Source of the DNA: Cellulomonas wangleii
GTDB lineage: Bacteria; Actinomycetota; Actinomycetes; Actinomycetales; Cellulomonadaceae
Reading direction: 5' to 3'
NCBI RefSeq assembly: GCF_018388445.1
Contig: NZ_CP074405.1
Coordinates: 1,426,001 to 1,490,000, forward strand
DNA: 64,000 nt
The translations under genes and the position numbers were made by a program. Position 1 is the stretch's first letter. Each line of letters starts with the position of its first letter. Positions 35,017 to 53,642 of the stretch are shown in pieces. The notes under the pieces were generated by a model that saw only the letters and a program-made list of their open reading frames with translations, was not told the origin of the DNA and did not search any database.

Positions 35017-35110
35017 GCCGGTGCGGGGTCCCGCCCCCGGGACGCCGACGCGTCGTCGTCACGTCCCCGGACGGTCACGCGCCCGGTGCGTGCACGTCAC
35101 ACGCCGTGGG

Positions 35111-35116
35111 TACAGT
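35111..35116 (+). promoter_or_regulatory. TACAGT -10 box, probable leaderless start
   Basis: TACAGT is followed by six bases and the GTG at 35123, with no ribosome site between them. Confidence 0.5.
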
Positions 35117-35122
35117 GCGGAC

Positions 35123-36046
35123 GTGAGCGAATCCACCGCGCGCCTCGCCCTCGCGACCTGCGCCCAGCTGCCGGACCTCGACCCCGACGACCTGCCGCTG
35201 CGCGACGCGCTGGCCGCGCGGGGCGTCCCCACGGACGTCGTGGTGTGGGACGACCCGACGGTCGACTGGGCCGCCTACCCGCACGTCCTCATCCGCTCGA
35301 CGTGGGACTACACGGACCGTCCCGCCCAGTTCGCCGACTGGACGCGGCGCGTGGAGCGCACCTCCACGCTGTTCAACCCGGCGGACGTCGTGGCCTGGAA
35401 CATCGACAAGGCGTACCTGCGGGACCTCGAGCAGCGTGGCGTCCCGATCGTCCCGACCATCTGGCTCGACCCGGAGCGCAACCTCAACGCGCGCGCCATC
35501 CACACCCGGTTCCCGGCGTTCGGTGACTTCGTCATCAAGCCGACCGTCAGCGCGGGCTCGCGTGACACGGGCCGGTACGACGCGGGGGTGACCCCGTCGC
35601 GGTCCCTGGCCATCACGCACGCCAAGAACCTGCTCGCCGTGGGTCGGCGCGTGATGCTGCAGCGCTACCTCACGCAGGTCGACACCCAGGGCGAGAGCGC
35701 GCTGGTCTACGTCGACGGCGAGTTCAGCCACTGCGTGCGCAAGGAGCCGCTGCTCGAGGGGCCGTACCGGGCGGGGGAGAAGGAGGGCGTCCTGTTCCGC
35801 GAGCGGGTCCTGGCCGCCCGTGACGCCACCGAGCAGGAGCGCGCCGTGGCCGACATGGTCGTCTCGGAGCTGGGCAAGATCTTCCCCGACCGTGCACCGC
35901 TGCTCTACACCCGCGTCGACCTCATCCCCGACGACGAGAACCAGCCGGTCGTCCTCGAGGTCGAGCTGGCCGAGCCGTCCCTGTTCTTCGAGCACGCCCC
36001 CGGGGCCGTGGAGCGGTTCGCGGACGCGGTGCGCGCCCGACTGTGA
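35123..36046 (+). CDS. ATP-grasp domain protein (RimK/glutathione synthetase-like)
   Basis: The 307-residue protein has an N-terminal pre-ATP-grasp region (TCAQLPDLDPDDLPLRDALAARG, then LIRSTWDYTDRPAQFADW). Its ATP-grasp core includes FVIKPTVSAGSRDTGRY, a phosphate-loop region, VMLQRYLTQVDTQGESALVYVDGEFSHCVRK and the metal-binding VLEVELAEPSLFFEHAPGAVERFADAV. The family joins a carboxylate to an amine with ATP. The layout resembles the ATP-grasp enzymes related to cycloserine DcsG and glutathione synthetase. The substrate is unknown. The GTG start is set by the TACAGT box. Confidence 0.88.
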   Translation: MSESTARLALATCAQLPDLDPDDLPLRDALAARGVPTDVVVWDDPTVDWAAYPHVLIRSTWDYTDRPAQFADWTRRVERTSTLFNPADVVAWNIDKAYLRDLEQRGVPIVPTIWLDPERNLNARAIHTRFPAFGDFVIKPTVSAGSRDTGRYDAGVTPSRSLAITHAKNLLAVGRRVMLQRYLTQVDTQGESALVYVDGEFSHCVRKEPLLEGPYRAGEKEGVLFRERVLAARDATEQERAVADMVVSELGKIFPDRAPLLYTRVDLIPDDENQPVVLEVELAEPSLFFEHAPGAVERFADAVRARL

Positions 36047-37799: not shown

Positions 37800-39419
37800 G
37801 TGTCGTCCCCAGACCCTGCCGCCGTGACCGGCCGTGCCGTCGGGCCGAAGACCGGTCCGGACGACCACGCGCCCGGGGACGGGCAGCGACGCGCCCCGGC
37901 GCCCGTCCTGGCCGCCGACGCCCCGGCAGCCGACGCCCCGGCAGCCGACGTCCCGGCCGCAGGCGACGCGGCCACCGACGTCCCGGCCGCAGACGACCCG
38001 GCCACCCGCGCCCCGGCCTCCGACGTCCCGGCCGCCGACCCCGCCCGCGCGGGAGCCTCATCGACCGCCCGCGGCTGGCTGCTGCCCGCCGGCGTGGGGC
38101 TCGCCGTCGCGCTGGCGTTCACGGCGTACTCCGTCGCGCAGTGGCAGACGTTCGTCGTGCGCTCGTGGGACCTGGGGATCTTCACGCAGCTGGCGGCGCG
38201 GTACGCGGCGCTCGAGTCGCCGGTCGTCCACATCAAGGGCCCGGAGTACAACCTGCTGGGCGACCACTTCCACCCGCTGCTGGTGCTGCTGGGTCCGGTG
38301 TACGCCGCGTTCCCGCACGCGTTCACCCTGCTCGTCGTGCAGAACGTGCTCTTCGGCGTGGCCGCGGCCGTGGTCACGTGGGCGGCCGTGCCGGTCCTGG
38401 GCCGCGTCACCGGTGGCCTCGTCGGTGTGGCCGCGGGCCTGAGCTGGGGCCTGCAGAGCGCGGTGGAGGCGCAGTTCCACGAGATCGCGTTCGCCGTCCC
38501 GCTGCTCGCGGTCTCGCTGGCAGCGGCGATGCGCGAGCGGTGGCGCACGGCGGCCGTGGCCGGGGCCCTGCTCGTGCTGGTCAAGGAGGACCTGGGCCTG
38601 ACGACCGCCGTCCTGGGGGTCGTGCTGGCGTGGCGGGCGCGGCGTCCCGCGCTGCTGCTGCTCACCGCGTGGGGCGTCGGCGGCTTCCTGCTGGCCACGC
38701 GCGTGGTGCTGCCCCTGCTCAACCCCGACGGGGAGTGGGCCTACGGGTCGCGCCTCGACCTGGCCGCCGCGCTCGCGGACCCCCTCGCGCTCTACGACCC
38801 CGCCAAGGGGCACACCCTGTGGCTGCTGGTGGTCGTCACGGGCGGCATCGCGCTGCGCTCGCCGTTCGTGCTCGTCGCCGGTCCCACGCTGGCGTGGCGG
38901 TTCCTGTCGCCGGAGCCGGGGTACTGGGGACCGACGTGGCACTACAGCGCCGTGCTCATGCCGATCGCGTTCATGGCCATGCTCGACGGCGTCGACCGCG
39001 CCCGGCGTGGCCGCGTCCGGTGGCTGCGGCACTACAGCCGGTACGCGCCGGTGGTGGGCCTGACGGCGTGCCTCATGCTGCTGCCCCAGCTGCCGCTGTG
39101 GCAGCTGACGAACCCCGGCCTGCACTTCGGTGCGCCGCGCGCCCAGGCCGCGCGGGACACGCTGGCCACGATCCCGGACGGCGCGGTCGTCGAGACGGAC
39201 GTCGGCCTGATGTCGTACCTCGTCGACCGCACCGACGTGTACTACCTCGGCAACCGCAACCCCGTGCCGGACTACCTGCTGGTCGACCGGCAGTCGGGCG
39301 GCGTCCCCCAGGAGTGGGGGGACGTCCTGCAGGTGGCCGAGATCCTGCACCCGGGCGTCCCGTTCGAGGTCGTCCACGTGCAGGACGGGTACGAGGTGGC
39401 GCGCCCCGTGGCGGACTGA
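37800..39419 (+). CDS. DUF2079 multi-pass membrane protein
   Basis: The 539-residue protein starts with about 85 low-complexity Ala/Pro/Asp residues. About ten hydrophobic helices follow, with the DUF2079 hallmarks RSWDLGIFTQLAARYA, GDHFHPLLVLLGPVYA, VEAQFHEIAFAVPLLA, VKEDLGLTTAVLG and PEPGYWGPTWHYSAVLMPIAF. The fold is related to GT-C glycosyltransferases and mannosyltransferases, but the activity is undefined. GTG 37800 is chosen for GGGAGG five bases upstream. tRNA-Arg follows on the other strand. Confidence 0.88.
   Translation: MSSPDPAAVTGRAVGPKTGPDDHAPGDGQRRAPAPVLAADAPAADAPAADVPAAGDAATDVPAADDPATRAPASDVPAADPARAGASSTARGWLLPAGVGLAVALAFTAYSVAQWQTFVVRSWDLGIFTQLAARYAALESPVVHIKGPEYNLLGDHFHPLLVLLGPVYAAFPHAFTLLVVQNVLFGVAAAVVTWAAVPVLGRVTGGLVGVAAGLSWGLQSAVEAQFHEIAFAVPLLAVSLAAAMRERWRTAAVAGALLVLVKEDLGLTTAVLGVVLAWRARRPALLLLTAWGVGGFLLATRVVLPLLNPDGEWAYGSRLDLAAALADPLALYDPAKGHTLWLLVVVTGGIALRSPFVLVAGPTLAWRFLSPEPGYWGPTWHYSAVLMPIAFMAMLDGVDRARRGRVRWLRHYSRYAPVVGLTACLMLLPQLPLWQLTNPGLHFGAPRAQAARDTLATIPDGAVVETDVGLMSYLVDRTDVYYLGNRNPVPDYLLVDRQSGGVPQEWGDVLQVAEILHPGVPFEVVHVQDGYEVARPVAD
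37914..38048. repeat. 15-bp tandem repeats in the DUF2079 N-terminus
   Basis: About nine units, led by two exact copies of GCCGACGCCCCGGCA and then drifting, encode the pentapeptide ADAPA/ADVPA. They form a flexible cytoplasmic tail. Confidence 0.8.
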
Positions 39420-39428
39420 GGCGTCCGG

Positions 39429-39501
39429 CGCCCCCGGCAGGACTCGAACCTGCAACCGACGGATTAGAAGGCCGTTGCTCTATCCATTGAGCTACGGGGG
39501 C
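39429..39501 (-). tRNA. tRNA-Arg (anticodon UCU), CCA not encoded
   Basis: Acceptor GCCCCCG/CGGGGGC, D arm GCTCAATGGATAGAGC, anticodon loop CTTCTAA with TCT and T loop TTCGAGT. The innermost anticodon-stem pair is a C-U mismatch (31:39). G73 is followed by CCG, so CCA must be added by the tRNA nucleotidyltransferase. Confidence 0.93.
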
Positions 39502-39601
39502 CAGTGCCGACCAGCGTAGTGGCGTGGGCGCGACGGCCCTGCGTGGACGTGCGACGTGACCCCGGCGCGCAGACCTGTGACCTGTCACCCGCGCGCCGCG
39601 T

Positions 39602-39630
39602 TTGGCCTGGTCAGGTGTGGCACCGACAAT
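39602..39630 (+). promoter_or_regulatory. promoter of the first GTPase pair
   Basis: TTGGCC (39602-39607) and GACAAT (39625-39630) are 17 bases apart. The GTG start follows GACAAT by six bases, so the transcript may be leaderless. Confidence 0.45.
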
Positions 39631-39636
39631 GGTCCT

Positions 39637-41334
39637 GTGAGCGCGCAGCCTGGAACCGTGCCTGCGCAGCCGTCCACGTCTGCGCCGGGTCGCTCCGACG
39701 TGCCCGCGGACGCGCCGATGCTGGCCCGCCCGCTGGCCCAGACGTCCCTGCTGGACGCCGTGCGCGACCTGCGCCGCGACGTCGAGGCGACCTCCTTCCC
39801 GCTGGAGATCCCCGGTGTCGGTGCCGCACGGGCGTCGCGGGCGCGGCTGGTGGACCAGCTCGACGAGCACCTGGTGCCGCGCCTGACCGAGCTGTCGGCG
39901 CCGGCCGTCGTGGTCGTCGCCGGCTCGACGGGCGCGGGGAAGTCCACGCTCGTGAACTCGCTGGTGGGGCGGGAGGTCACCGCCGCCGGTGTGCTGCGCC
40001 CGACCACGCGCGAGCCCGTGCTGGTGCACCACCCGCTCGACACCGACCTGCTGTCCCACCACCCGGTGCTCGACGAGGTGCGGGCCGTCGCGGCGGACAC
40101 GGTGCCCCGCGGCATCGCGATCCTCGACGCCCCCGACCTCGACTCGGTCCTCGACTCCAACCGTGACACCGCGCACCGGCTCCTCGAGGCCGCGGACCTG
40201 TGGCTCTTCGTCACCACGGCCGCCCGGTACGGCGACGCGCTGCCGTGGCGCGTGCTGGAGGCCGCCGTGGAGCGCAGCACGTCCGTGGCGATGGTCCTCA
40301 ACCGGGTGCCGCCGGCGTCGCTCCCGACGATCCGCGGCGACCTGCTCGACCGGCTGCGCACCCACGGGCTGGCGGGCTCCCCGCTGTTCGTGATCCCCGA
40401 CGTCGGGCCGCACTCCGGTCCGCTGTCGGGTGCGGTGGTCGCACCCGTCCTGCGGTGGCTGACGATGCTCGCCGGCCCCGACCGGGCGCGCACCGTCGTC
40501 GCGCGGACGCTGCGGGGTGCGCTCGGCGCCCTGCGGCCCTGGGTCGACGAGCTGGCCGAGGCCGTGCAGGAGCAGGCCGACGCCGCGCAGCACGTGGCGC
40601 AGGTGCTCGACGCGGCCACCGCGGCGCCCCGTGACGCGGCGGTGGAGACGATCCGCGCCGGGGCCGTCGCGGACGGCGCGGTGCGGGCCCGCTGGGCCGA
40701 GCTCGCCGCGCAGCGTGCGCCCTTCGCCCGGCTCGTCGGCCGATCCGGCCGCGTGCGCGGCACCGCCCGCACCGGCCGTGGCCGCGGGACGGCCGTCGCC
40801 CCGCTGCTCACCGACCTCACGACGTCCACGACGGCGGTGCTCACGGCCGTCGGGCAGCGTGGCGACGAGGCCCTGCGGGCCGCGCTGACCGGTCCGGGCG
40901 CACCCGCCGGTGCGTCGTCGGTCCTCGAGCGCTGGCCGGACGGCGACGCCTCGCGCGTGTCCGCGGCCGAGCGGGCCGCGCGTGCCTGGGTCGGTGAGGG
41001 TTCCCGCGCCGCACGCGCGACCCTGGCGGGCGGCGGCGCGGACGCCCGTCGTCGCGCGCAGGTCGCCAAGGCCGTCGGTGAGGACGCGCTGGCAGCCCTC
41101 GCGCTGGCCGCCGCGAGCGGTGTCGACGAGGCTGCCGAGGCTGCCCGCACACTGCTCGGTGGCGCGGGGGACGACCTCGTCGCGACGCTGCGCGACGACC
41201 TCGAGCGGCGCGCCCGTGCCCAGGTCGACCTCGAGCGCACCATCGCCGGCCGGGCGCTCGACGACCCCGACCTCGCGGCCGACGCGTCGTCGCGGCTGCG
41301 GCTGCGCCTCGCCGTCCTGAAGGGCCTGACGTGA
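39637..41334 (+). CDS. dynamin-like large GTPase, pair 1 partner A
   Basis: The 565-residue protein has G1 AGSTGAGKSTLVNSLVG (about 95-111), a switch I region with RPTTREPVLVHHP, G3 ILDAPDLDSV (about 162-171) and, where NKxD is expected, the degenerate LNRVPP (about 221-226). Its C-terminal half is helical, Ala/Arg-rich and without clear membrane segments. It resembles the soluble partner of actinobacterial dynamin-like pairs, which remodel membranes or divide cells in the known cases. GTG 39637 follows a promoter-like box. It overlaps partner B by four bases (GTGA). A full-length paralogue lies at 45570. Confidence 0.85.
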   Translation: MSAQPGTVPAQPSTSAPGRSDVPADAPMLARPLAQTSLLDAVRDLRRDVEATSFPLEIPGVGAARASRARLVDQLDEHLVPRLTELSAPAVVVVAGSTGAGKSTLVNSLVGREVTAAGVLRPTTREPVLVHHPLDTDLLSHHPVLDEVRAVAADTVPRGIAILDAPDLDSVLDSNRDTAHRLLEAADLWLFVTTAARYGDALPWRVLEAAVERSTSVAMVLNRVPPASLPTIRGDLLDRLRTHGLAGSPLFVIPDVGPHSGPLSGAVVAPVLRWLTMLAGPDRARTVVARTLRGALGALRPWVDELAEAVQEQADAAQHVAQVLDAATAAPRDAAVETIRAGAVADGAVRARWAELAAQRAPFARLVGRSGRVRGTARTGRGRGTAVAPLLTDLTTSTTAVLTAVGQRGDEALRAALTGPGAPAGASSVLERWPDGDASRVSAAERAARAWVGEGSRAARATLAGGGADARRRAQVAKAVGEDALAALALAAASGVDEAAEAARTLLGGAGDDLVATLRDDLERRARAQVDLERTIAGRALDDPDLAADASSRLRLRLAVLKGLT

Positions 41335-42893
41335 GCGACGACCCGACCAGCACGCCGGCGGCACCGCCCGTCCCGGACGGTGACGAGCCCCCGCCGGTGG
41401 TGCCGGCCGCACCGGACGGCGCCGTCCGCGGCGCGACGACCGCCGCGCTCGAGGGGCGCGTCGACGCGCTCGACGGTGCGCTGGCGGTCGGCGGTGCACG
41501 CTTCGACCCCGCGGTCGTGGCGGAGGTCGGCGCCACCATCGACCGGGTGCGCGAGCGGTTGGCCCTCGGGGTCGACCACACCGTCGTCGCCCTGGCGGGG
41601 GGCACCGGCTCCGGCAAGTCCAGCCTGTTCAACGCCGTCAGCGGGTTGCAGTTCGCCGACGTCGGAGTGCGGCGGCCCACGACCTCGCGCGTCACGGCGT
41701 GCGTCTGGGGTGGGGACGGCGACGCGCTGCTCGACTGGATCGGCGTGGAGCCGGAGCACCGCATCGAGCGCGAGAGCCTGCTGGACGGGGACCGGGAGGC
41801 GTCGCTGCGCGGGCTGGTCCTGCTCGACCTGCCCGACCACGACTCCATCGCGCCGGAGCACCGCGACGTCGTCGACCGCGTGCTGCCCCAGGTCGACCTG
41901 CTCGTGTGGGTCGTCGACCCCCAGAAGTACGCCGACGACGCGCTGCACTCCGGCTACCTGCAGCGCATGACGGGGCGCGACTCCTCGATGCTCGTGGTGC
42001 TGAACCAGGTGGACACGGTGCCCGCCGAGGTGCGTGCCGACCTCGCGGCGGACGTGCGGCGGCTGCTCGTCGAGGACGGGCTGCCCGACGTCGCCGTGCA
42101 CCCCGTGTCGGCCGTCACCGGTGACGGGGTCCGCGAGCTGCGCGACGTGCTCGCCCAGGCCGTGGCGCGCCGGTCCGTGGCGGCCGCGCACGCCGACGCC
42201 GAGCTCGCCGACGCCGCCCGTGCGGTGCTCACGCAGGTCGCACCGCGTGAGCCCGCGCCGAACGCGCTGGCGCTCGGGGTCGTCGTCGACCGGCTGGCCG
42301 CGGCGGCCGGGCTGACGGCCGTCGGGGCGGCCGTCGCGGCGGCCGTGCGCGGCGGGTCCGGCCGGGCGCCCCGGCTGGGCGACGTGCACGCCGACGGCGT
42401 GGGGCTGGCCCGCGCGTCCTGGCTCTCCGGGGCGACGCAGGGGCTGCCGCAGCGGTGGGCGGCCGACCTGCGCGACCGTGTCGCGACCACCGTCGAGCTG
42501 CGGCTGGCGGTGACGGACGCGCTCGCGCACGTGCCGGTGGCAGCCCGCCGGTCCCGGGCTGCGGTGGTGCTGCTGGTGCTCGCCGCGCTGGCGGGGGTGG
42601 CCGGCCTCGTCGGCGCCGGGCTGCTCGTCGCCGACGCGCAGGGCGCGTCGTTGCCCTGGGTGCCGCCGGGCGCGGTGGTGGCCGGCGTGCTCGCGCTGGC
42701 GCTCGTGCTCCTGGTGGCGTCGCTGCTGGTGCGGGGGCGGGCCGCCCGGACGCGGGGGGAACGTGTCGTGACGGACGGCCGTGCCGCGATCGAGGCTGCT
42801 GCCCGAGGGCGGCTGCTGACCCCCACGCAGGACGTGCTCGCGGAGCACCGGCACGCGCGGGAGCTGGCGGCGCGGGCCCTCGCAGCGGACTGA
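41331..42893 (+). CDS. membrane-anchored GTPase (YfjP-like), pair 1 partner B
   Basis: The 520-residue protein has G1 AGGTGSGKSSLFNAVSG (about 89-105), switch I RPTTSRVTACVWG, G3 LLDLPDHDSIAPEH (about 164-177), VWVVDPQKYADDALH and a near-standard G4, VLNQVDTV (about 223-230). Two hydrophobic helices near 410-437 and 446-468 should anchor it in the membrane with the GTPase in the cytoplasm. It resembles the YfjP/HSR1-type GTPases. It is translationally coupled to the dynamin-like partner, as expected for subunits of one complex. Confidence 0.88.
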   Translation: MSDDPTSTPAAPPVPDGDEPPPVVPAAPDGAVRGATTAALEGRVDALDGALAVGGARFDPAVVAEVGATIDRVRERLALGVDHTVVALAGGTGSGKSSLFNAVSGLQFADVGVRRPTTSRVTACVWGGDGDALLDWIGVEPEHRIERESLLDGDREASLRGLVLLDLPDHDSIAPEHRDVVDRVLPQVDLLVWVVDPQKYADDALHSGYLQRMTGRDSSMLVVLNQVDTVPAEVRADLAADVRRLLVEDGLPDVAVHPVSAVTGDGVRELRDVLAQAVARRSVAAAHADAELADAARAVLTQVAPREPAPNALALGVVVDRLAAAAGLTAVGAAVAAAVRGGSGRAPRLGDVHADGVGLARASWLSGATQGLPQRWAADLRDRVATTVELRLAVTDALAHVPVAARRSRAAVVLLVLAALAGVAGLVGAGLLVADAQGASLPWVPPGAVVAGVLALALVLLVASLLVRGRAARTRGERVVTDGRAAIEAAARGRLLTPTQDVLAEHRHARELAARALAAD

Positions 42894-43020
42894 CGCCACG
42901 TCCGACGGGGTCCTCGGGGCTCTCGAGCCGCCCACAGCCCTCGCCCGTGCCGCCCGGCTCCACCGGTGGGCACCGCCCTGCCCGGTGCCGCCCGCTCGCG
43001 TCCCACGATGGCTGCTCGAC

Positions 43021-43038
43021 GCCCCGCGCTCGCGGGGC
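43021..43038. terminator. GC hairpin between GTPase pair 1 and the ssb gene
   Basis: GCCCCGCG and CGCGGGGC pair with a two-base spacer, or six bases if the inner pairs open. It ends 21 bases before the ssb start and may end the GTPase transcript. Confidence 0.35.
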
Positions 43039-43059
43039 CAGGGCAGACAGGGGACCTCG

Positions 43060-43611
43060 ATGGGAACGCACACGCAGGACGTGACGGTCGTCGGGTGGGT
43101 CGGATCCGACGTGCGCAGCTACCACCTCGACGGGGTCGGCGGCGTGCCGTACGCGCAGTTCCGGCTGGCCTCCACCCGGCGCGTGCTCGACCGGCAGACC
43201 GGCGCCTTCCGCGACGGCCCGACGCTGTGGTTCACGGTGAAGGCCTGGCGCACGGTCGCGGTCAACCTCGCGGCGTCGCTGCGCAAGAGCGACCCGGTCG
43301 TGGTGGTGGGGCGGCTCGGGCAGTCGGAGTGGGTCGCGCAGGACGGTACGGCGCGCACCGAGCTGGTGCTGGAGGCGCTGGCGGTCGGCCACGACCTGGC
43401 GTATGGCACGGCGCAGTTCCGCCGCACCATGGCGGGCGCGCGCCGCCGGGACGACCTGCCGGGCGACGGCTCCGAGTCGGACCTGACCGTCCTGCCCGAG
43501 GTCACGGGGCCGGACGGCGGCGTGTTCCCGGACGACCCGTGGGCGTCCGCCGCCGACGAGGCGCCGCCGGCGGACGAGCCGGAGGGTCTGGCGCTCGCCG
43601 CACGCGGGTGA
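43060..43611 (+). CDS. ssb: single-strand DNA-binding protein paralogue
   Basis: The 183-residue protein has an SSB-type OB fold in its first 110 residues: QDVTVVGWVGSDVRSY, YAQFRLASTRRVLDRQTGAFRDG, TLWFTVKAWRTVAVNLAASLRKSDPVVVVGRL. The tail is acidic but ends EGLALAARG, without the DDDIPF-like tip through which canonical SSBs recruit replication and repair proteins. It is therefore likely a second, specialised SSB. ATG 43060 (MGTHTQDVTV) matches the usual SSB start. It lies between the two GTPase pairs and upstream of ettA. Confidence 0.88.
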   Translation: MGTHTQDVTVVGWVGSDVRSYHLDGVGGVPYAQFRLASTRRVLDRQTGAFRDGPTLWFTVKAWRTVAVNLAASLRKSDPVVVVGRLGQSEWVAQDGTARTELVLEALAVGHDLAYGTAQFRRTMAGARRRDDLPGDGSESDLTVLPEVTGPDGGVFPDDPWASAADEAPPADEPEGLALAARG

Positions 43612-43753
43612 TCGCCTAGGCTGGTGGATCGGCATCCGGCGCCGGCGGCCGGGCGGTGACAGCGCGACCCCTTGCCCGCACCTCGGTGCGGCGGGGGAGC
43701 GCGCGCCCCGGCCCGCGGCACCACCAGACCTACGAGGAGCGGACGAGCACTCA

Positions 43754-45436
<1,683 letters not shown>

Positions 45437-45455
45437 CGCAGCAGCCCGCACCACC

Positions 45456-45491
45456 CGACGGCCCGGACGAGCACGCGCGTCCGGGCCGTCG
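45456..45491. terminator. ettA terminator hairpin
   Basis: A perfect 14-bp stem (CGACGGCCCGGACG and its complement) with an eight-base loop lies 20 bases after the ettA stop. Confidence 0.8.
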
Positions 45492-45569
45492 CGGGTCCGG
45501 CGTCCGCTCTCAGCGGCACCGGCCTCCGTCGACGGGCTGCCTCGGGGACGGTCGGGCAGACTGTCCGGC

Positions 45570-47534
45570 ATGACGGAGCCCGAGGTCAGCGACCCGCACG
45601 TGGCCCCGGCCGACGCGGGGGACGGGCTCCTCGGCACGCTCGAGCGGCTCCAGGCCCGTCTGGGCGCCCTCACCCTCCCGCTCGAGGCCCCCGGGGTCGA
45701 CGTCGCGCGCACCGACCGGGCGGCCGCGCTGACCCAGCTCGACGACTACCTGCTGCCGCGGCTGCGGGCACGGTCCGCGCCGCTCCTGGTCGTCGTCGGC
45801 GGCTCGACCGGTGCGGGCAAGTCCACCCTCGTCAACTCCCTCCTGGGGTCGGAGGTCTCGGCGCCGGGCGTGCTGCGCCCCACCACCCGGGCACCGGTCC
45901 TCGTGCACCACCCGCTCGACGAGCGCTGGTACTCCACGGACCGCGTGCTGCCCGGCCTCGCCCGGCTCACCGGCCACCCCGGCGCCGGCGCGCGCGGGGA
46001 CGACGCACAGGTCGACCCGGCGCGCGCTCTGCGGCTCGTGGCCTCCGACGCGCTGCCGCGCGGGCTCGCGCTGCTCGACGCCCCCGACGTGGACTCCGTG
46101 GACGTCGGCAACCGGCGCCTGGCGGCGCAGCTCCTCGACGCCGCCGACCTGTGGCTGTTCGTCACCACCGCGGCACGTTACGCCGACGCCGTCCCGTGGG
46201 ACCTGCTGCACCGGGCGGCAGCCCGGCACGCGCAGGTCGCGCTCGTCGTCGACCGCGTGGACCCCGGCACGGAGGAGGTCGTGCAGGACCTGCGCCGCAT
46301 GATGGACGAGAACGGGCTGCCGGACGCCCCGCTGTTCCTGGTGCCCGAGGCGCCGCTCACGGACGGGCTGCTGCCGGAGCATGCGGTCGCGGACGTGGCC
46401 ACGTGGCTCACCGCCCTGGGCGCCGACGCACCCGCGCGCGAGGCGGTGGCGACGGCGACCCGCGACGGTGTGGTGGACGACCTGGTGCGGCGCAGCCACG
46501 TGCTCGCGGACGCCGCCGACGTGCAGGTCGCGACCGACGCACGACTGCGCCGGACCGTGGCGGCCGCCTACGACGACGGCGCCGCGCACGTGCGCGCCGC
46601 GACCTCCGACGGCGCGATGCTGCGCGGCGAGGTCCTGGCCCGCTGGCAGGAGCTCGTCGGCACGGGCGACCTGCTGCGGTCGGTCGAGCAAGGCGTCGGG
46701 CGGGTGCGCGACGCCGTCACGGGGTTCTTCCGCGGCACGCCCGCGCCGGCGCCGCGCGTCGAGCAGGCCATCGCGCACGGGCTGGCGGCGGTGGTCCTGG
46801 ATGCCGCGGACGAGGCCGCGGAGCGCACCCACGCCGCGTGGCGGGGCGACCCCGCGGGCGCCGCGCTGCTCCAGGGCCTCGACCTCGCCCGCGCGTCCAC
46901 CACGCTGCGGGCCGAGGTGGACGCGCAGGTCCGCGGCTGGCAGTCCGACGTCCTCGAGCTCGTGCGCGAGCAGGGGCAGTCCCGTCGCGGCACCGCCCGC
47001 TACCTCTCGTTCGGCGTCAACGTCGCCGGCGTCAGCCTGATGGTCCTCGCGTTCGCGTCCACGGGCGGGCTGACCGGCATCGAGGTCGGGATCGCCGGTG
47101 GCACGGCGGTCGTCGCCCAGAAGCTCCTGGAGGCGGTCTTCGGTGACGACGCCGTGCGGCGCCTCACCGTCGAGGCCCGCGAGCGGCTCGACGCCCGCGT
47201 GACGGACCTGCTGGCCCGCGAGGCCGAGCGGTACACGGCCCAGCTCGACGCGCTCGGTGCCGCCCGGGCGGACGGTGCCGGGCTGCGCGCCGTGGCCGCG
47301 GACGTCGAGCGGGCCGCGCACGCCGACCGTGCCGGGCGCCCTGCCGGGACGCCGAGCGCCTCGTCGCGCGCTGTCGGCACCGCGCTGCGCGGTGCCGGGT
47401 GGACGCGCGGGGACGGGACCCCTGGCACCGCGACCGGCGCGCCCGGGGAGACCACACCGCCGGGGGACGAGCCGACCGCGCGCGGCGGCTGGTGGCGGCG
47501 GCTGCTCGGCGGCCGCCCGCGGGACGACGCATGA
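45570..47534 (+). CDS. dynamin-like large GTPase, pair 2 partner A
   Basis: The 654-residue protein is a paralogue of the 39637 gene: G1 GGSTGAGKSTLVNSLLG (about 77-93), RPTTRAPVLVHHPLD, G3 LLDAPDVDSVDVG (about 168-180), LWLFVTTAARYADAVPW and a degenerate G4, VVDRVDPG. Unlike its paralogue it has a hydrophobic segment pair near 485-520 (VSLMVLAFASTGG and VGIAGGTAVVAQKLLEAVFG), reminiscent of a membrane-inserting hairpin, and a longer Thr/Gly/Pro tail. It overlaps partner B by four bases (ATGA). A -10-like CAGACT precedes the ATG. Confidence 0.85.
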   Translation: MTEPEVSDPHVAPADAGDGLLGTLERLQARLGALTLPLEAPGVDVARTDRAAALTQLDDYLLPRLRARSAPLLVVVGGSTGAGKSTLVNSLLGSEVSAPGVLRPTTRAPVLVHHPLDERWYSTDRVLPGLARLTGHPGAGARGDDAQVDPARALRLVASDALPRGLALLDAPDVDSVDVGNRRLAAQLLDAADLWLFVTTAARYADAVPWDLLHRAAARHAQVALVVDRVDPGTEEVVQDLRRMMDENGLPDAPLFLVPEAPLTDGLLPEHAVADVATWLTALGADAPAREAVATATRDGVVDDLVRRSHVLADAADVQVATDARLRRTVAAAYDDGAAHVRAATSDGAMLRGEVLARWQELVGTGDLLRSVEQGVGRVRDAVTGFFRGTPAPAPRVEQAIAHGLAAVVLDAADEAAERTHAAWRGDPAGAALLQGLDLARASTTLRAEVDAQVRGWQSDVLELVREQGQSRRGTARYLSFGVNVAGVSLMVLAFASTGGLTGIEVGIAGGTAVVAQKLLEAVFGDDAVRRLTVEARERLDARVTDLLAREAERYTAQLDALGAARADGAGLRAVAADVERAAHADRAGRPAGTPSASSRAVGTALRGAGWTRGDGTPGTATGAPGETTPPGDEPTARGGWWRRLLGGRPRDDA

Positions 47535-49123
47535 GCCCGACCCTGGACGAGCGCCTCGACGCGCTGTCCGCAGCCCTGGACGCGGGCGGGGAGCGCCTGC
47601 CCGAGCCGCTGGTCGCGCGCACCCGGGACGTGCTGGACCGGGTGCGGGAGCGCGCGGGCCTGTCGGCCGAGCACACCGTCGTCGCACTGGCGGGAGCCAC
47701 CGGGTCGGGCAAGTCCTCGCTGTTCAACGCGCTCGTCGGGGACGAGCTCGCGGCGACCGGCGTGCAGCGACCCACGACGTCCCACCCGCTGGCGGTCGTC
47801 GTCGGCGAGGACCCGGACGGCACGGGCCCCGGGCGGCTGCTGGACTGGCTCGAGGTGCGTCGACGACACGCCGTGCCGCCCGCGGCGGGGCTCGCGACCG
47901 GGCTCGTGCTGCTGGACCTGCCGGACCACGACTCCGTGGTCGTGGAGCACCGGCTGCGCGCCGAGCGGCTGGTCGCGCGCGCGGACCTGCTGGTGTGGGT
48001 CGTCGACCCCCAGAAGTACGCCGACGGGGCCCTGCACGAGCGGTACCTGCGCCCGCTCGCGGGCCGTGACGACGTCGTGGTGCTCGTGCTCAACCAGGCG
48101 GACCGCCTCCCGGCCGCCGACGTGGCCGCGGTGGTGGCGGACCTGCGCCGCCTCGCCGCGGACGACGGGCTCCCGCGTGCCCGTGTCGTGGCCGCCTCGG
48201 CCCGCAGCGGCGACGGCGTGGCCGACCTGCGTGCGCTCGTCGCGCGGGCGGTCGAGCGTCGCGAGGCCGGCAACCGGCGGTGGGTGGCGGACGTGCGCGC
48301 GGCAGCGCTGGAGGTGGCCGACGCGTGCCGCGACGTCCCGGGGGGACGGCAGCGGTCCGCGCGGGCGGACGACCTGGTCGCAGCGCTGGAGGACGCCGCG
48401 GGGGTGCCGACCGTCGTCGCGGCCGTGCGCCGGTCCGCGGTGCGCCGGGCCGTCGCGCACACCGGCTGGCCGCCCGTGCGGTGGCTCGCCCGGCTGCGCC
48501 CGGACCCGTTGCGCCGGCTGCACCTGGCGCCACGCGCGGTGGGCGACGAGGTGGCGCCCACGTCGCTGCCGCCCGCCGGCCCGGCCCAGCGGGCGCGTGC
48601 CGCGACGGCGGTGCGGGACCACGCCGACGCGGTCCTCGCGGGGGCACCGGACGCGTGGGTGCTGGCGGCGCGGGCGCGCGTCACCACGGCGGACCTGCCC
48701 GACGCCCTCGACCTGGCCGTCGCCCGTACCCGCCTGCTCCCCGAGCGCCCGGTCTGGTGGTGGCGCGCGGTCGGTGCCGTGCAGTGGCTGCTGCTCGCAG
48801 CCGCCGTCGCCGGAGCCCTCTGGTTGGCCGGCCTCGCGGTGCTGGCGTACCTGCAGCTGCCCGACCCGGTGACCCCGGTGTGGGGACCCGCACCTGCCCC
48901 CACCGTGCTGCTGGTGGGCGGCGTGCTCGCCGGGCTGCTGGTGGCGGCGCTCGGTGCGGTGGCCGCTCGGTGGGGTGCCCGGGCGCGTGCCCGGTCCGCC
49001 CGGCGTCGGCTGCGCGCAGCGGTCCAGGACGTGGCACGTCGTCTCGTCGTCGACCCGGTCGCCCAGGAGGTCGCCTCGCTGCGCAGCTGCCGGGACCTGG
49101 CCGCCCGCGCCGCGGCTCGCTGA
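47531..49123 (+). CDS. membrane-anchored GTPase (YfjP-like), pair 2 partner B
   Basis: The 530-residue paralogue of the 41331 gene has G1 AGATGSGKSSLFNALVG (about 54-70), RPTTSHPLAVVVG, G3 LLDLPDHDSVVVEH, VWVVDPQKYADGALHERYL and G4 VLNQADRL (about 186-193). Two membrane helices near 416-443 and 456-478 separate the GTPase domain from a short Arg-rich tail. It shares the fingerprints DLPDHDS and VVDPQKYAD with partner B of pair 1, showing common descent. The start codon overlaps the stop of partner A. Confidence 0.88.
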   Translation: MSPTLDERLDALSAALDAGGERLPEPLVARTRDVLDRVRERAGLSAEHTVVALAGATGSGKSSLFNALVGDELAATGVQRPTTSHPLAVVVGEDPDGTGPGRLLDWLEVRRRHAVPPAAGLATGLVLLDLPDHDSVVVEHRLRAERLVARADLLVWVVDPQKYADGALHERYLRPLAGRDDVVVLVLNQADRLPAADVAAVVADLRRLAADDGLPRARVVAASARSGDGVADLRALVARAVERREAGNRRWVADVRAAALEVADACRDVPGGRQRSARADDLVAALEDAAGVPTVVAAVRRSAVRRAVAHTGWPPVRWLARLRPDPLRRLHLAPRAVGDEVAPTSLPPAGPAQRARAATAVRDHADAVLAGAPDAWVLAARARVTTADLPDALDLAVARTRLLPERPVWWWRAVGAVQWLLLAAAVAGALWLAGLAVLAYLQLPDPVTPVWGPAPAPTVLLVGGVLAGLLVAALGAVAARWGARARARSARRRLRAAVQDVARRLVVDPVAQEVASLRSCRDLAARAAAR

Positions 49124-49329
49124 CCCCGGCGGGCGGCGCGCCCGTGGCGGACGAGGGCCGTGGGGGGTGGACCCGCGAAGGGCCTGGACCCGTGCCGGCC
49201 GTGCGCACTCCCACGCGTCCGTGCGGCAGGATCGACGTCGGCCGCCGTGCCCGCCGTCGCACCGCGGGGAGCCGCACGGGGCCGCACGAGGCCGGACGAA
49301 CCGTCGCGGCCGGCACAGGAGGGAAGTCG

Positions 49330-49824
49330 ATGGCGAGGATCGAGGTCCCGGTCCAGCTGCGCTGGTCCGACATGGACGCGTACGCCCACGTGAACAACGT
49401 CGAGATGCTGCGGCTCCTGGAGGAGGCGCGCATCGAGGTGTTCTGGCGCCACCCCGAGGGTCCGGACGGCGTCGTCCCCGACGGGGCACGGGCCACCGCG
49501 GTGCTCGACGCCGGGCCGGGTGCGCTGACCTCGACGCTGGTCGCCCGGCAGGAGATCCAGTACGTCCGGCCGCTGCCGTACCGGCGCGCGCCGGTCGTCA
49601 TCGAGCTGTGGATCGGGCACCTGGGGGGTGCCAGCCTCGACGTCTGCTACGAGGTCCGGGACGCGCCGACCGCCGTGGTGGGCTCGGAGGTCTACGCACG
49701 CGCGACGACGACGATCGTGCTGGTCGACTCCGCGACGGGCGCACCGCGCCGGCTGACCGCGCAGGAGCGTGCGGTCTGGGAGCCGTACGTCGAGGAGCCG
49801 GTGGTCATCCGCCGCAGGGCATGA
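49330..49824 (+). CDS. 4-hydroxybenzoyl-CoA thioesterase-family protein
   Basis: The 164-residue hot-dog-fold protein has the signature LRWSDMDAYAHVNNVEMLRLLEEARIEVF near the start, where the aspartate and HVNN belong to the active site. It then has QEIQYVRPLPYRRAPVVIELW. It probably hydrolyses an acyl-CoA of unknown chain. GGAGG lies nine bases before the ATG. The 206 bases upstream hold no other gene. Its last 20 bases overlap the stop end of the convergent oxidoreductase gene. Confidence 0.9.
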   Translation: MARIEVPVQLRWSDMDAYAHVNNVEMLRLLEEARIEVFWRHPEGPDGVVPDGARATAVLDAGPGALTSTLVARQEIQYVRPLPYRRAPVVIELWIGHLGGASLDVCYEVRDAPTAVVGSEVYARATTTIVLVDSATGAPRRLTAQERAVWEPYVEEPVVIRRRA

Positions 49825-51589
49825 CCGCGGCGGGGTACGGGCCGGTGGTCGCCGCGGCCGTCGTGCCCCCACCCGCCGACGGTGCCAGGTCGCGCCGGGC
49901 ACGCTCGGCCGACCGGGCCGCACGGGCGACGTTGCGCTGCATGCCGCCGAACACCACCCCGTGGAACGGGTAGACCGCCCACCAGTACAGCTGCCCGGCC
50001 AGGCCGTGCGGGTGGAACAGGGCGCGCTGCGCGAACACCACGGGCGGCCGTCGCCACTCGGACGGCTCCCACGGGGTGTCGTCGGGCACGGCGGGCGTCC
50101 CGTCGTCGTCCAGGGGCGTGTCGGCGGGCTCCACGCGCAGCTCGAGCCACGCCAGCCCGGGCAGCCGCATCTCGGCCCGCAGCCGCAGCAGCCGGCCAGG
50201 GACGATCTGCTCCACGCGCCAGAAGTCGACGGCGTCGTCGAGCAGCAGCCGTGCAGGGTCGCGGCGACCGCGGCGCAGCCCCGGACCGCCCACGACCCGG
50301 TCCAGCAGCCCGCGCACCCGCCAGGCGAGCGACCACGAGTACCAGCCGCGCTCGCCGCCCACCGCCTCCACCACGCGCCACAGCGCGGCGGGGGAGGCGT
50401 CGACGCGGACGCGGCGCTCGTCGACGAACAGGGTGCCGCCCGCCCAGTCGGGGTCGGAGGGCAGCGGGTCGCTGGGAGCCCCGGGCGGCGTCGCGGACGA
50501 CCACCGGGTGGTGACGCCGGCGCCCTGGACGCGGGCCAGCGCGAGGCGCACGGCACGGTCGAAGCCGATGAGCCCGTCCGGCGGGTCCGGCACGTACCGC
50601 GCGATGTCGTGCTCGTCGCACACCACCTCGTGGACCAGGGACTCCACCAGCGGGCGTGCGAGCCCGCCGGGCACGGGCGTGACCAGCGACACCCACAGGC
50701 TCGACAGCCGTGGGCTCAGCACCGGGACCGCGACGATGGCCCGCCGCGGCAGCCCGGCGATGCGCGCGTACCGCTGCATCATGTCGCGGTACGTCAGGAC
50801 GTCCGGCCCGCCGATGTCGAAGGCCCGCGACACGTCGGGCGGCATCGCGGCCGACCCGACGAGGTAGCGCAGCACGTCGCGGATCGCGATGGGCTGGATC
50901 CGGTTCTGCACCCAGCGCGGCACGGTCATGGCCGGGAGCCGCTCCGTGAGGTACCGCATCATCTCGAAGGACGCCGAGCCCGAGCCGAGGACCACCGCCG
51001 CACGCAGCACCGTCGTCGGCACGCCGGACGCCAGCAGGATCTCCCCGACCTCCGTGCGCGACGCCAGGTGGGGTGAGAGCTCCTCGCCCTCGGGGTACAG
51101 ACCGCCCAGGTAGACGATCCGACCCACGCCCGCCTCACGCGCCGCCTGGGCGAAGACCAGCGCCGTGTGGCGGTCGCGCTGCTCGAAGGTCCGGCCGGTG
51201 CCCAGCGAGTGGATCAGGTAGTACGCCACGTCGGAGCCCTCGAGTGCCGCACGGATCTGATCCGGCTCACCGGCGTCCGCCGCAACGACCTCCACGTCGT
51301 CGTACCACGGTCGTCCGCGCAGCCGCTCCGGGTGCCGCGCCAGGGCCCGCACCCGGTACCCGGCGGCGAGCAGCTCGGGCACCAGCCGTCCCCCGACGTA
51401 CCCGGTCACCCCCGTGACCGCCACGAGCGGGGCATCGGGGCGGGGTCGGCCGTCCGGGCCGGTGCCCGGCACGAGCCCTTCCAGGGTGCGCACGACCGGC
51501 TCGGGCGCGAGGTCGGCCTGGGGGCCGGTCCCGTGCCCGGGGTCGTCGCCGTGCCCGGGGCTCGGGGCGTCGGGGCGCGCGTCGCTCAT
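49805..51589 (-). CDS. NAD(P)-binding oxidoreductase fused to a DUF2867 domain
   Basis: The 594-residue protein has a variable acidic/Pro start. An atypical short-chain dehydrogenase/NmrA-like domain follows (about 55-330) with VAVTGVTGYVGGRLVPELLAAG as dinucleotide motif and VVYLGGL-like IVYLGGLYPEGEELSPHLASR. A C-terminal DUF2867 domain (about 370-550) has WYSWSLAWRVRGLLDRVVGGPGLRRGRRDP and ends with WWAVYPFHGVVFGGMQRN. This two-domain arrangement is common in actinobacteria, with unknown substrate. It converges on the thioesterase gene and overlaps it by 20 bases. Confidence 0.88.
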   Translation of the reverse strand: MSDARPDAPSPGHGDDPGHGTGPQADLAPEPVVRTLEGLVPGTGPDGRPRPDAPLVAVTGVTGYVGGRLVPELLAAGYRVRALARHPERLRGRPWYDDVEVVAADAGEPDQIRAALEGSDVAYYLIHSLGTGRTFEQRDRHTALVFAQAAREAGVGRIVYLGGLYPEGEELSPHLASRTEVGEILLASGVPTTVLRAAVVLGSGSASFEMMRYLTERLPAMTVPRWVQNRIQPIAIRDVLRYLVGSAAMPPDVSRAFDIGGPDVLTYRDMMQRYARIAGLPRRAIVAVPVLSPRLSSLWVSLVTPVPGGLARPLVESLVHEVVCDEHDIARYVPDPPDGLIGFDRAVRLALARVQGAGVTTRWSSATPPGAPSDPLPSDPDWAGGTLFVDERRVRVDASPAALWRVVEAVGGERGWYSWSLAWRVRGLLDRVVGGPGLRRGRRDPARLLLDDAVDFWRVEQIVPGRLLRLRAEMRLPGLAWLELRVEPADTPLDDDGTPAVPDDTPWEPSEWRRPPVVFAQRALFHPHGLAGQLYWWAVYPFHGVVFGGMQRNVARAARSAERARRDLAPSAGGGTTAAATTGPYPAAVMPCGG

Positions 51590-51633
51590 CCGGGCAGTCT
51601 GCGGCCGGGCGAGCGGGGCCGCACCCGGGGCGC

Positions 51634-52626
51634 TCAGCCCGTCAGGAGCGCGAGGGTGCGCCGCTCCGCCACGTGCTGCGAGCGTGTCGGCGCGATCGTC
51701 TCGCCGCGCTCCCACAGCTCGATCACCCGCGGGTCGATGTACGACGACCGGGCGACCGTGGGGGTGTTGCCGAGCTCCTCGGAGACCGCCTTGACGACCG
51801 ACGCGACGACGCGGCGGCGTCCCCGCTCGCTGCGCGGGGGCGGACCGCCCTCCGCCAGGCCGCGGGCCGCCAGCACGGTGGCGTGCCACGTGCGGAAGTC
51901 CTTGGGTGTCGCCTCGCCGAGCCGGTCGCGCACGTACGCCCCGACGTCGTTGCTCGTCACGTCGTGCCACCCCGCGTCGTCGCGCCACGCCAGCAGCTCC
52001 GGGCTGTCGTCGCGGCGTCGCAGCAGCGTGCGGACCAGCTCGGCGACCGTCTCGTCGTCGACGACCGTGTCGCGGATCTGCCCCGACTTCGCGGGGAAGA
52101 CGAGGTGCACCGCGCCGGGGGAGCCGTCCGCGTCGGACAGCACGCGCACGTGCTCGCGGCGCAGCGTCGCCAGGCCGAACGAGCCGTGCCGGCGGGTGTA
52201 GCCCTCGGTGCCGACCCGCAGGTAGGCGCGGTCCAGCAGGCGGAACGCCAGGGCCAGCGCCTTGTCCCGCGGCATGCCCTCGAGCGCCAGGTCCGCCCGC
52301 ACCCGCCGGCGCGCGGCCGGCAGCCGGCGGGCCACCTGCAGCACGTGCTCGTGCTTGAGCCGGGCCCGCCGGGCCTGCCACTGCAGGTGGTACAGGTACT
52401 GACGGCGCTGCGCCTCGTCCAGCCCGGCGGCCTGGATGTGGCCGTTGTGCCACGGGCTGATCCAGACCTCGCGCCAGGCCGGCGGGATCGCGAGCGTGGA
52501 GAGGCGCTCGAGGTGCTCCGGCTCGTCGATGCGGCGCCGCTCGTGGTCGAGGTACACGAAGCCGCGCCCGGCCCGGCGGCGCGTCCAGCCGGGCTGGTCG
52601 AGGCGCACACGTCGGAGCCGGACCAT
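51634..52626 (-). CDS. DNA topoisomerase IB (poxvirus/bacterial type)
   Basis: The 330-residue protein has the bacterial TopIB features: ISPWHNGHIQAAGLDEAQRRQYLYH, then LRVGTEGYTRRHGSFGLATLRREHV, the catalytic-core Lys in VFPAKSGQIRD, FRTWHATVLAARGL, and the nucleophile region ARSSYIDPRVIELW with Tyr near residue 296. It relaxes supercoils by forming a 3'-phosphotyrosine link, without ATP. The family occurs in some bacteria as an accessory enzyme. Length and order of motifs are normal. Confidence 0.94.
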   Translation of the reverse strand: MVRLRRVRLDQPGWTRRRAGRGFVYLDHERRRIDEPEHLERLSTLAIPPAWREVWISPWHNGHIQAAGLDEAQRRQYLYHLQWQARRARLKHEHVLQVARRLPAARRRVRADLALEGMPRDKALALAFRLLDRAYLRVGTEGYTRRHGSFGLATLRREHVRVLSDADGSPGAVHLVFPAKSGQIRDTVVDDETVAELVRTLLRRRDDSPELLAWRDDAGWHDVTSNDVGAYVRDRLGEATPKDFRTWHATVLAARGLAEGGPPPRSERGRRRVVASVVKAVSEELGNTPTVARSSYIDPRVIELWERGETIAPTRSQHVAERRTLALLTG

Positions 52627-52763
52627 GCCGCAGAGTCTCGCCCGCCGGCGCGGGCCGCGCTCGTCGAGCGGGACGCGGGAGCCGTGGACCGCGACGGGCG
52701 GACCGGCGGTGGACGGACCGGTGCGGACCCGGCGCGGACCCGGTGCCCGCGGGGACGCCGGCG

Positions 52764-53642
52764 TCAGTCCGGGACCCGGACCATGCCCTCCTGCGCGATG
52801 GAGGCGACGAGCGTGCCCTCCCGGTCGAACACCCGCGCCGCACCCAGGCCGCGCCCGCCCTGGGCGCTCGGGGACGTCTGGACGAACAGCAGCCAGTCGT
52901 CGACGCGGACGTCGCGGTGCCACCACATGGCGTGGTCGAGGCTCGCCATGGACAGCCCCGGCGTCGCCCACGGCCGGCCGGCGCGGCGCAGCACCGGCTC
53001 GAGCATGATCTGGTCGCAGCCGTACGCCAGCAGCGCACGGTGCAGCAGCTGGTCGTCGGGGACGGGGCCGCGGGCCCGCGCCCAGACGCACTGGTCGCCC
53101 TGGCTGCCCTGGGCGCCGGCGCGCAGGTAGATCGACCCGTCGACGTGGCGCAGGTCGAACGCGGACTCCTGCGCCCAGAACCGGGCCATCGGGTGGTCGA
53201 CGTCACCGAGCGCGTCGAGGGCCGAGCCGACCTCCTCCGGGTCCGGGACGTCGGGGGGCGTCTGCGCGTACTCGATGCCGGGCTGCCGCTCCTGGAACGA
53301 CGCGATCATCGACAGGATCGGTGCGCCGCCCTGCAGCGCGTGCGTGCGGCGGGCGGAGAACGAGCGGCCGTCGCGCAGCCGCTCGACCGCGAAGCCGATG
53401 GGCGCGGAGTCGTCCCCGGGCCGCAGGAAGTAGCCGTGCAGCGAGTGCGGCAGGCGGCCGTCCGGGACGGTGCGGCCCGCCGCGAGCAGCGCCTGCGCCA
53501 GGACCTGCCCGCCGAACACGCGGCCCTGCGGCTGCGGGAGGCTGAGCCCCTCGAACGTGTCCGGCTCGCTCGGGTCGGCGGTCAGGTCCAGGGCACGCAG
53601 CACCGCCCCGACGGGGTCGTGGCTCGCGTCGGGCAGCGTCAT
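52764..53642 (-). CDS. tesB: acyl-CoA thioesterase II
   Basis: The 292-residue protein has two hot-dog domains: PQGRVFGGQVLAQALLAAGRTV and LHGYFLRPGDDSAPIGFAVERLRDGRSFSARRTHALQ in the first, and SMASLDHAMWWHRDVRVDDWLLFVQTSPSAQGGRGLGAARVFDREG in the second, with the catalytic Asp in LDHAMWWH. It hydrolyses medium- and long-chain acyl-CoA in the cytoplasm. It starts three bases after the globin gene stop on the same strand, so the two are probably co-transcribed. Confidence 0.95.
   Translation of the reverse strand: MTLPDASHDPVGAVLRALDLTADPSEPDTFEGLSLPQPQGRVFGGQVLAQALLAAGRTVPDGRLPHSLHGYFLRPGDDSAPIGFAVERLRDGRSFSARRTHALQGGAPILSMIASFQERQPGIEYAQTPPDVPDPEEVGSALDALGDVDHPMARFWAQESAFDLRHVDGSIYLRAGAQGSQGDQCVWARARGPVPDDQLLHRALLAYGCDQIMLEPVLRRAGRPWATPGLSMASLDHAMWWHRDVRVDDWLLFVQTSPSAQGGRGLGAARVFDREGTLVASIAQEGMVRVPD

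What the first reader, a model, noticed from the sequence alone, without database searches (positions are those of the whole stretch)
39637..49123. Two paralogous pairs of large GTPases around ssb and ettA
Genes at 39637/41331 and 45570/47531 form two A-B pairs. In each, a dynamin-like protein (GSTGAGKSTLVNSL, DAPD) overlaps by four bases a two-TM YfjP-like GTPase (TGSGKSSLFNA, DLPDHDS, VVDPQKYAD). A1 matches A2 and B1 matches B2 in motif fingerprint, so one pair arose by duplication of the other. Four GTPases in strict pairs suggest two complexes or one hetero-oligomer acting on the membrane, possibly in division, membrane repair or defence. The intervening SSB paralogue and EttA may be part of the unit or bystanders. 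Known Streptomyces DynA/DynB supply a precedent for paired dynamin-like proteins, but the double pair with ssb between is not something I know.
Basis: partly seen in the sequence, partly recalled or inferred. Interest (0 to 1): 0.8.

Follow-up and report, generated by a model that had tools for sequence, protein, structure and literature searches.

The report
Two old DynA–DynB dynamin pairs
This actinobacterium carries two copies of a bacterial dynamin gene pair related to one that helps Streptomyces divide; the copies parted long ago, and the one beside the ssb and ettA genes belongs to a branch that has been losing its membrane-inserting parts.

Summary
Two A–B pairs of large GTPases flank an ssb paralogue and ettA on one strand, each A overlapping its B by four bases. 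A1/A2 (45% over 391 aa) and B1/B2 (41% over 462 aa) are paralogues. AlphaFold models of A2 and B1 have the mitofusin/BDLP dynamin fold, and B has two transmembrane-like helices, like Streptomyces DynA/DynB. A–B–ssb–ettA is an old actinobacterial arrangement, found with one pair in streptomycete and Nocardioides loci. Pair 1 is its local copy; pair 2 belongs to another clade that usually lies elsewhere in the genome but follows ettA here and in close relatives. A family-level tandem duplication is rejected (p-AU 2e-8); order-level versus older is undecided. ssb and ettA occur without a pair beside them, so they are not obligate parts. New here: graded divergence in membrane parts. A2 keeps a hydrophobic hairpin absent from 22 of 25 A proteins of pair 1's clade; in Demequinaceae and a second family, B of pair 1 has lost both transmembrane helices (0 of 39 complete copies have one). 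Best reading: two separate DynA:DynB machines, pair 1 at the septum, pair 2 in general membrane remodelling. Function is inferred.

The parts
39637..41334 (+). A1, DynA-type dynamin-like GTPase of pair 1 (GTG start; alternative start 39556); no TM-like segment in its C-terminal half
41331..42893 (+). B1, DynB-type GTPase of pair 1; AlphaFold model pLDDT 89 with mitofusin/Fzo1-like fold
42561..42731 (+). two TM-like helices of B1 (residues 411-429 and 449-467)
   Evidence: hydropathy; model helices 409-436 and 446-518. A weaker hydrophobic stretch at residues 313-331 (1.75) lies in a stalk helix
43060..43611 (+). SSB paralogue without the acidic ..PF tip; the genome's other SSB (4.044 Mb) ends ..SDEPPF
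43754..45436 (+). EttA, ABC-F translation factor
   Evidence: NCBIfam PRK11819.1, 923 bits, cut-off 599
45570..47534 (+). A2, DynA-type GTPase of pair 2; AlphaFold model pLDDT 85 with mitofusin/BDLP-like fold
47004..47144 (+). hydrophobic hairpin of A2 (residues 479-525), candidate membrane-inserting tip; only its first half passes the TM-like threshold
47531..49123 (+). B2, DynB-type GTPase of pair 2
48788..48961 (+). two TM-like helices of B2 (residues 420-438 and 459-477)

Best explanation
The locus holds two separate DynA:DynB-type dynamin machines. In each, B is fixed in the cytoplasmic membrane by a two-helix hairpin at the tip of a mitofusin-like stalk and recruits the co-translated A; GTP-dependent contacts between G domains build an A:B assembly that shapes or steadies the membrane. 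Pair 1 sits in the old A-B-ssb-ettA locus and is the positional counterpart of the streptomycete A-B pair (dynAB), so it most likely acts at the Z-ring/septum; its A lacks the hydrophobic hairpin and would act as a soluble partner riding on B. Pair 2 is an old paralogous pair that keeps hydrophobic segments in both partners and most likely does more general membrane remodelling or repair. Shown here: gene order, homology, clade structure, presence and absence of hydrophobic segments. Predicted: folds of A2 and B1. Inferred: the A:B complex, membrane action, septal role and division of labour.
Against: No experiment on this organism and no complex modelled. 12 of 59 genomes of the order have no B match, among them all sampled members of f4 (4), f12 (4) and f16 (3), so neither pair is generally needed for division. 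One clade of all ssb-linked pairs is not the best tree (lnL 13 lower, p-AU 0.16), while order-level duplication is allowed and scored 3.8 better than the free tree on 49 rows; then both pairs would be co-orthologues of dynAB and only position would favour pair 1. Dynamin_N is an unspecific marker: it rings in 12 of 14 control genomes, and MMR_HSR1 also passes in A1, B1 and B2. G3 is DxPD, not DxxG, and A's G4 is degenerate, so GTPase activity of A is uncertain. The Mantel correlation also follows from shared descent.
Confidence: 0.58

Rival explanations
1. One hetero-oligomer: all four GTPases (perhaps with SSB and EttA) form a single complex.
For: All six genes lie on one strand within 9.5 kb; the double layout is kept in 4 of 5 genomes of the family and in Promicromonospora sukumoe.
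Against: In 8 of the 12 two-pair genomes the pairs are far apart or on separate contigs; 35 of 59 genomes have one pair only; G054, of the window's genus, has only pair 1. ssb-ettA occurs without a pair beside it (9 loci) and a pair-ettA without the ssb paralogue (G020, G038).
Confidence: 0.1
2. Recent tandem duplication in this lineage, with redundant copies.
For: The pairs are adjacent and paralogous.
Against: A clade of the family's pairs 1 and 2 is rejected, lnL 281 lower, p-AU 2e-8 (the group was named after the trees had been seen); the clades differ consistently in membrane segments.
Confidence: 0.02
3. Both pairs are membrane-repair or defence dynamins rather than division proteins.
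For: BDLP-type fold; weak LeoA/LeoBC matches in PADLOC (best E 1.5e-7); B. subtilis DynA is described as a membrane-repairing suture (PMC6104087, passage).
Against: PADLOC matches cover only parts of the GTPase region; the pair 1 locus is kept beside housekeeping ettA across families; the characterised streptomycete relatives act in division.
Confidence: 0.2
4. The ssb-linked pair works on the nucleoid at the septum with the SSB paralogue, and membrane action is secondary.
For: Adjacency to ssb; no A hairpin in most of its clade; no TM-like segment in B in two families in which only this pair was seen. E. coli CrfC is a DNA-coupling dynamin (PMC6104087, passage).
Against: ssb and the pair separate in evolution; B1 in the window keeps two TM-like helices.
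Confidence: 0.1

Closest known systems
Streptomyces DynA/DynB (dynAB operon, vnz_12110/vnz_12105)
   Same: Adjacent A-B genes and B with two TM segments; streptomycete A-B loci are followed by ssb (8 of 9) and ettA further on (6 of 9); sequences in one family.
   Different: The streptomycete genomes searched have one pair (6 of f18, 5 named); here there are two, the second after ettA. A2 has a hairpin; streptomycete A has no TM-like segment (0 of 12). The S. venezuelae sequence itself was not fetched.
Campylobacter Cj-DLP1/Cj-DLP2 pair
   Same: Two unequal DLPs from one operon; fold match.
   Different: 10-12% identity in the fold alignments; the Campylobacter assembly domain was not looked for.
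Mitofusin/Fzo1 and BDLP
   Same: Predicted G domain plus neck helices: Fzo1/mitofusin, BDLP; hydrophobic hairpin at the far end of the stalk.
   Different: 11-17% identity; DxPD in place of the usual G3.
Mycobacterial IniA
   Different: Not among the phmmer hits for A2 or B2 against solved structures.

Membership tests
Actinobacterial DynAB (Streptomyces type) | A gene directly upstream of B, same strand | tested here: met
   Window. Relatives: 109 of 112 B rows had an A starting within 4.5 kb; the other 3 are a contig edge (L148), a locus edge (L162) and a B fragment (L187)
Actinobacterial DynAB (Streptomyces type) | B with two transmembrane segments | tested here: met
   hydropathy of B1 and B2; no dedicated TM predictor was used
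Actinobacterial DynAB (Streptomyces type) | A-B-ssb-ettA neighbourhood, pair 1 | tested here: met
Actinobacterial DynAB (Streptomyces type) | A-B-ssb-ettA neighbourhood, pair 2 | tested here: not met
   pair 2 lies downstream of ettA; it is therefore filed as a paralogue, not as the syntenic dynAB
Actinobacterial DynAB (Streptomyces type) | Pair 1 groups with streptomycete pairs to the exclusion of pair 2 | tested here: inconclusive
   p-AU 0.16 for one clade of all linked pairs, 0.63 for the rival order-level grouping
Actinobacterial DynAB (Streptomyces type) | Z-ring localisation and stabilisation, DynA-DynB interaction | not testable with these tools
   needs cell biology
Bacterial dynamin/mitofusin-type DLP | Dynamin_N domain | tested here: met
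   36.9, 32.9, 41.8, 36.7 bits, cut-off 27; an unspecific marker, 12 of 14 control genomes ring
Bacterial dynamin/mitofusin-type DLP | G domain with helical neck from both termini | tested here: met
   predicted for A2 and B1 only
Textbook GTPase motif set (not required for DynAB: streptomycete pairs share the deviation) | G3 DxxG and G4 N/TKxD | tested here: not met
   DxPD in nearly all rows; G4 mostly NQxD in B, N/DRVP-like in A
Leo-type defence dynamins | full-length match to LeoA/LeoBC models | tested here: inconclusive
   partial weak matches only
E. coli YfjP | orthology to YfjP | not tested

The most novel reading that the evidence does not exclude
After the ancient duplication the ssb-linked DynAB pair has been leaving the membrane stepwise: A lost its hairpin, then in Demequinaceae and one other family B lost its two-helix anchor, leaving a fully soluble dynamin pair near an SSB without its partner-binding tip; this pair may act on DNA or the septal nucleoid rather than on lipid.
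Probability: 0.12. Interest if true: 0.75.

Novelty: new variant of a known kind. Interest (0 to 1): 0.45.

Why it matters
It shows that the family of the division-linked DynAB system exists in many non-streptomycete actinobacteria as two old, separately diverging versions, and that one version has shed membrane segments to different degrees in living families. That makes a plain question testable: which steps of a bacterial dynamin's work need membrane insertion by A, by B, or by neither.

Tried and rejected
Local tandem duplication: rejected. Dating the split more finely failed: order-level duplication (109 rows, lnL 7.05 lower, p-AU 0.42; 49 rows, lnL 3.79 higher than the free tree, p-AU 0.63) and one clade of all ssb-linked pairs (49 rows, lnL 13.0 lower, p-AU 0.16) are both allowed. 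The 109-row test of the linked clade and the variants with or without L086 did not finish and were not rerun. Defence reading: only partial PADLOC hits. Transcription units: no sigma-70-like promoter and no + strand terminator-like site in 39300-49400, one - strand site inside ettA; uninformative. Solved relatives by sequence: none for A2, one weak GTPase Der hit for B2. BDLP and the Campylobacter pair are not in the VIA-align lists, only in Foldseek's (109, 111).

Literature. No paper held dynamin + YfjP + actinobacteria. The listings showed no title reporting a double pair or a dynamin-ssb-ettA locus; several listings were capped (12 of 66, 15 of 201, 8 of 1,434). Of papers I saw passages of six only (PMC8748795, PMC7968930, PMC6428758, PMC3765725, PMC6104087, PMC6637917). 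Only open-licence PMC papers are held, and Schlimpert 2017 was not, so what it says about neighbours is unknown to me. That Streptomyces SsbB is SCO2683 and acts in segregation, and that dynA is sven_2472, is recalled; PMC3765725 calls sco2685/sven2472 a putative ATP-binding protein.

Rows dropped: Tessaracoccus L180 (spread over several frames) from trees; L148, L162 B1 and L187 had no pairable A; the rest of L162 was dropped as a duplicate of L186; L162 and L187 were left out of the counts. Group labels and three 'linked' labels (L144, L155, L177) were set by hand. The hydropathy test started at about residue 300-380 of trimmed proteins. Part's output was cut; the counts come.

Full report
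What is there. On the + strand, between a tRNA-Arg on the - strand at 39427-39501 and - strand reading frames with Pfam matches from 49805 on, lie A1, B1, an SSB paralogue, EttA, A2 and B2. Each A/B junction overlaps by four bases. A1-A2 and B1-B2 are clear paralogues and the A-B cross matches are limited to the GTPase region; over trimmed full-length alignments A1-A2 are 36% and B1-B2 41% identical. Searches of the genome with A2 and B2 found only these four genes. Dynamin_N gave two further places, over its cut-off only with neighbouring pieces of the frame; I did not identify them.

Where else they occur. Of 59 genomes drawn from the window's order, 47 have a match to B2; by my count of the rows 12 have two pairs, 35 one and 12 none (G029 also has an A-like match on a third contig). 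In 4 of those 12 the two pairs flank ssb-ettA as here; in 8 they lie far apart or on separate contigs. G054, of the same genus, has only pair 1. In 148 genomes across the phylum, 46 match B1, some only weakly. Promicromonospora sukumoe has the window's double layout. Georgenia, Actinomyces naeslundii and Thermoactinospora rubra have two pairs on separate contigs, one of them beside ssb.

History. In all trees (B, 65 and 113 rows; A, 65 rows; A+B joined, 109 rows, and 49 rows with a mixture model) pair 1 lies in a clade of ssb-linked pairs (25 rows in the joined set; in one, L177, the stretch ended before ssb could be seen), and pair 2 in a clade of pairs from the order that, outside the window's family, lie away from ssb-ettA. 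Single ssb-linked pairs of the order join pair 1's clade but not clearly. Making the window family's two pairs one clade costs 281 log units (p-AU 2e-8; the group was named after the trees were seen). Whether the split happened within the order (not rejected, and slightly better than the free tree) or earlier (one clade of all linked pairs not rejected but 13 log units lower) stays open. If within the order, both pairs are co-orthologues of dynAB. Within each clade A and B distances are correlated (r 0.95 and 0.92); shared descent alone would also give this.

Membrane segments. By a 19-residue hydropathy test, A of pair 1's clade has no TM-like segment in 22 of 25 rows (the other 3 peak at 1.67-1.92), A of pair 2's clade in 0 of 30, A of single ssb-linked pairs of the order in 1 of 13, A of linked Nocardioidaceae and Streptosporangiales-type pairs in 0 of 10, streptomycete A in 12 of 12, and other unlinked pairs in 2 of 19. 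The window's A2 itself passes only modestly (1.81). B lacks a TM-like segment in 0 of 30 rows of pair 2's clade, 0 of 13, 0 of 10 and 0 of 13 in the next three groups, 2 of 19 other unlinked pairs (both peaking just at 1.6), and 8 of 25 in pair 1's clade; these 8 are all the rows of two families, f9 (which groups with named Demequina) and f17. In them the flanking helices are kept and the hydrophobic hairpin is replaced. A wider census gave 25 complete B copies from 26 f9 genomes and 14 from 18 f17 genomes (16 with a match; several of these drafts are under 80% complete), none with a TM-like segment, and no second pair was seen there. The test is simple, and no dedicated TM predictor was available.

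ssb and ettA. The SSB paralogue lacks the acidic tip that the genome's other SSB has; 7 of 56 such paralogues (one species counted twice) end in PF. Nine of the 30 SSB loci read have ettA beside ssb (L192, L194-L197, L199, L200, L202, L203) in genomes whose A-B pair is elsewhere or was not found. G020 and G038 have A-B-ettA with only one SSB match in the genome. So ssb and ettA are old neighbours, not obligate parts.

How it most likely works. B anchors in the membrane, recruits A, and the A:B assembly acts by GTP-dependent contacts. For Streptomyces, DynB's two TM segments, its partner DynA, and its links to SsgB, SepF2 and SepX are published, and sepX-dynB co-occurrence reaches unicellular actinobacteria (PMC8748795, passages); dynAB is vnz_12110/vnz_12105 (PMC6428758, passages). 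This genome has an SsgA-family gene. I therefore place pair 1 at the septum and give pair 2 a broader membrane role; that is inference. The identity of streptomycete A-B with dynAB rests on gene order, the TM count and their being the only pair found in the streptomycete genomes searched (6, 5).

Verdict. The finding is real and of a known kind, with a twist: two old, diverged DynAB versions with graded loss of membrane segments. Interest 0.45.

Noticed in passing
L220-L244 and L250-L262, L264: Demequinaceae and a second family have an ssb-linked A-B pair whose B has no TM-like segment while the flanking helices are kept.
   Followed up: partly
L180:7276-13887: In Tessaracoccus coleopterorum A, B and ettA are spread over several frames, suggesting sequence errors or decay; described only and dropped from trees.
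   Followed up: no
L187:6535-7500: Microbispora hainanensis carries a B fragment matching only the C-terminal part of B2 (query 331-566), besides its ssb-linked pair.
   Followed up: no
window 51634-53091 (-): DNA topoisomerase IB-like frame (Topoisom_I, Top1B_N_bact); next to it, in the frame 49805-53206 (-), DUF2867 and NAD-binding matches.
   Followed up: no
window 35021-36046 (+): Protein related to D-cycloserine synthetase DcsG but below the curated cut-off (269 bits, cut-off 360).
   Followed up: no
L150 and L183: Thermoactinospora rubra has two pairs although it lies outside the window's order; B of the unlinked one is 53% identical to B2.
   Followed up: partly
G029:C10:33978-34712: A genome with two pairs has a further A-like match on a third contig.
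   Followed up: no
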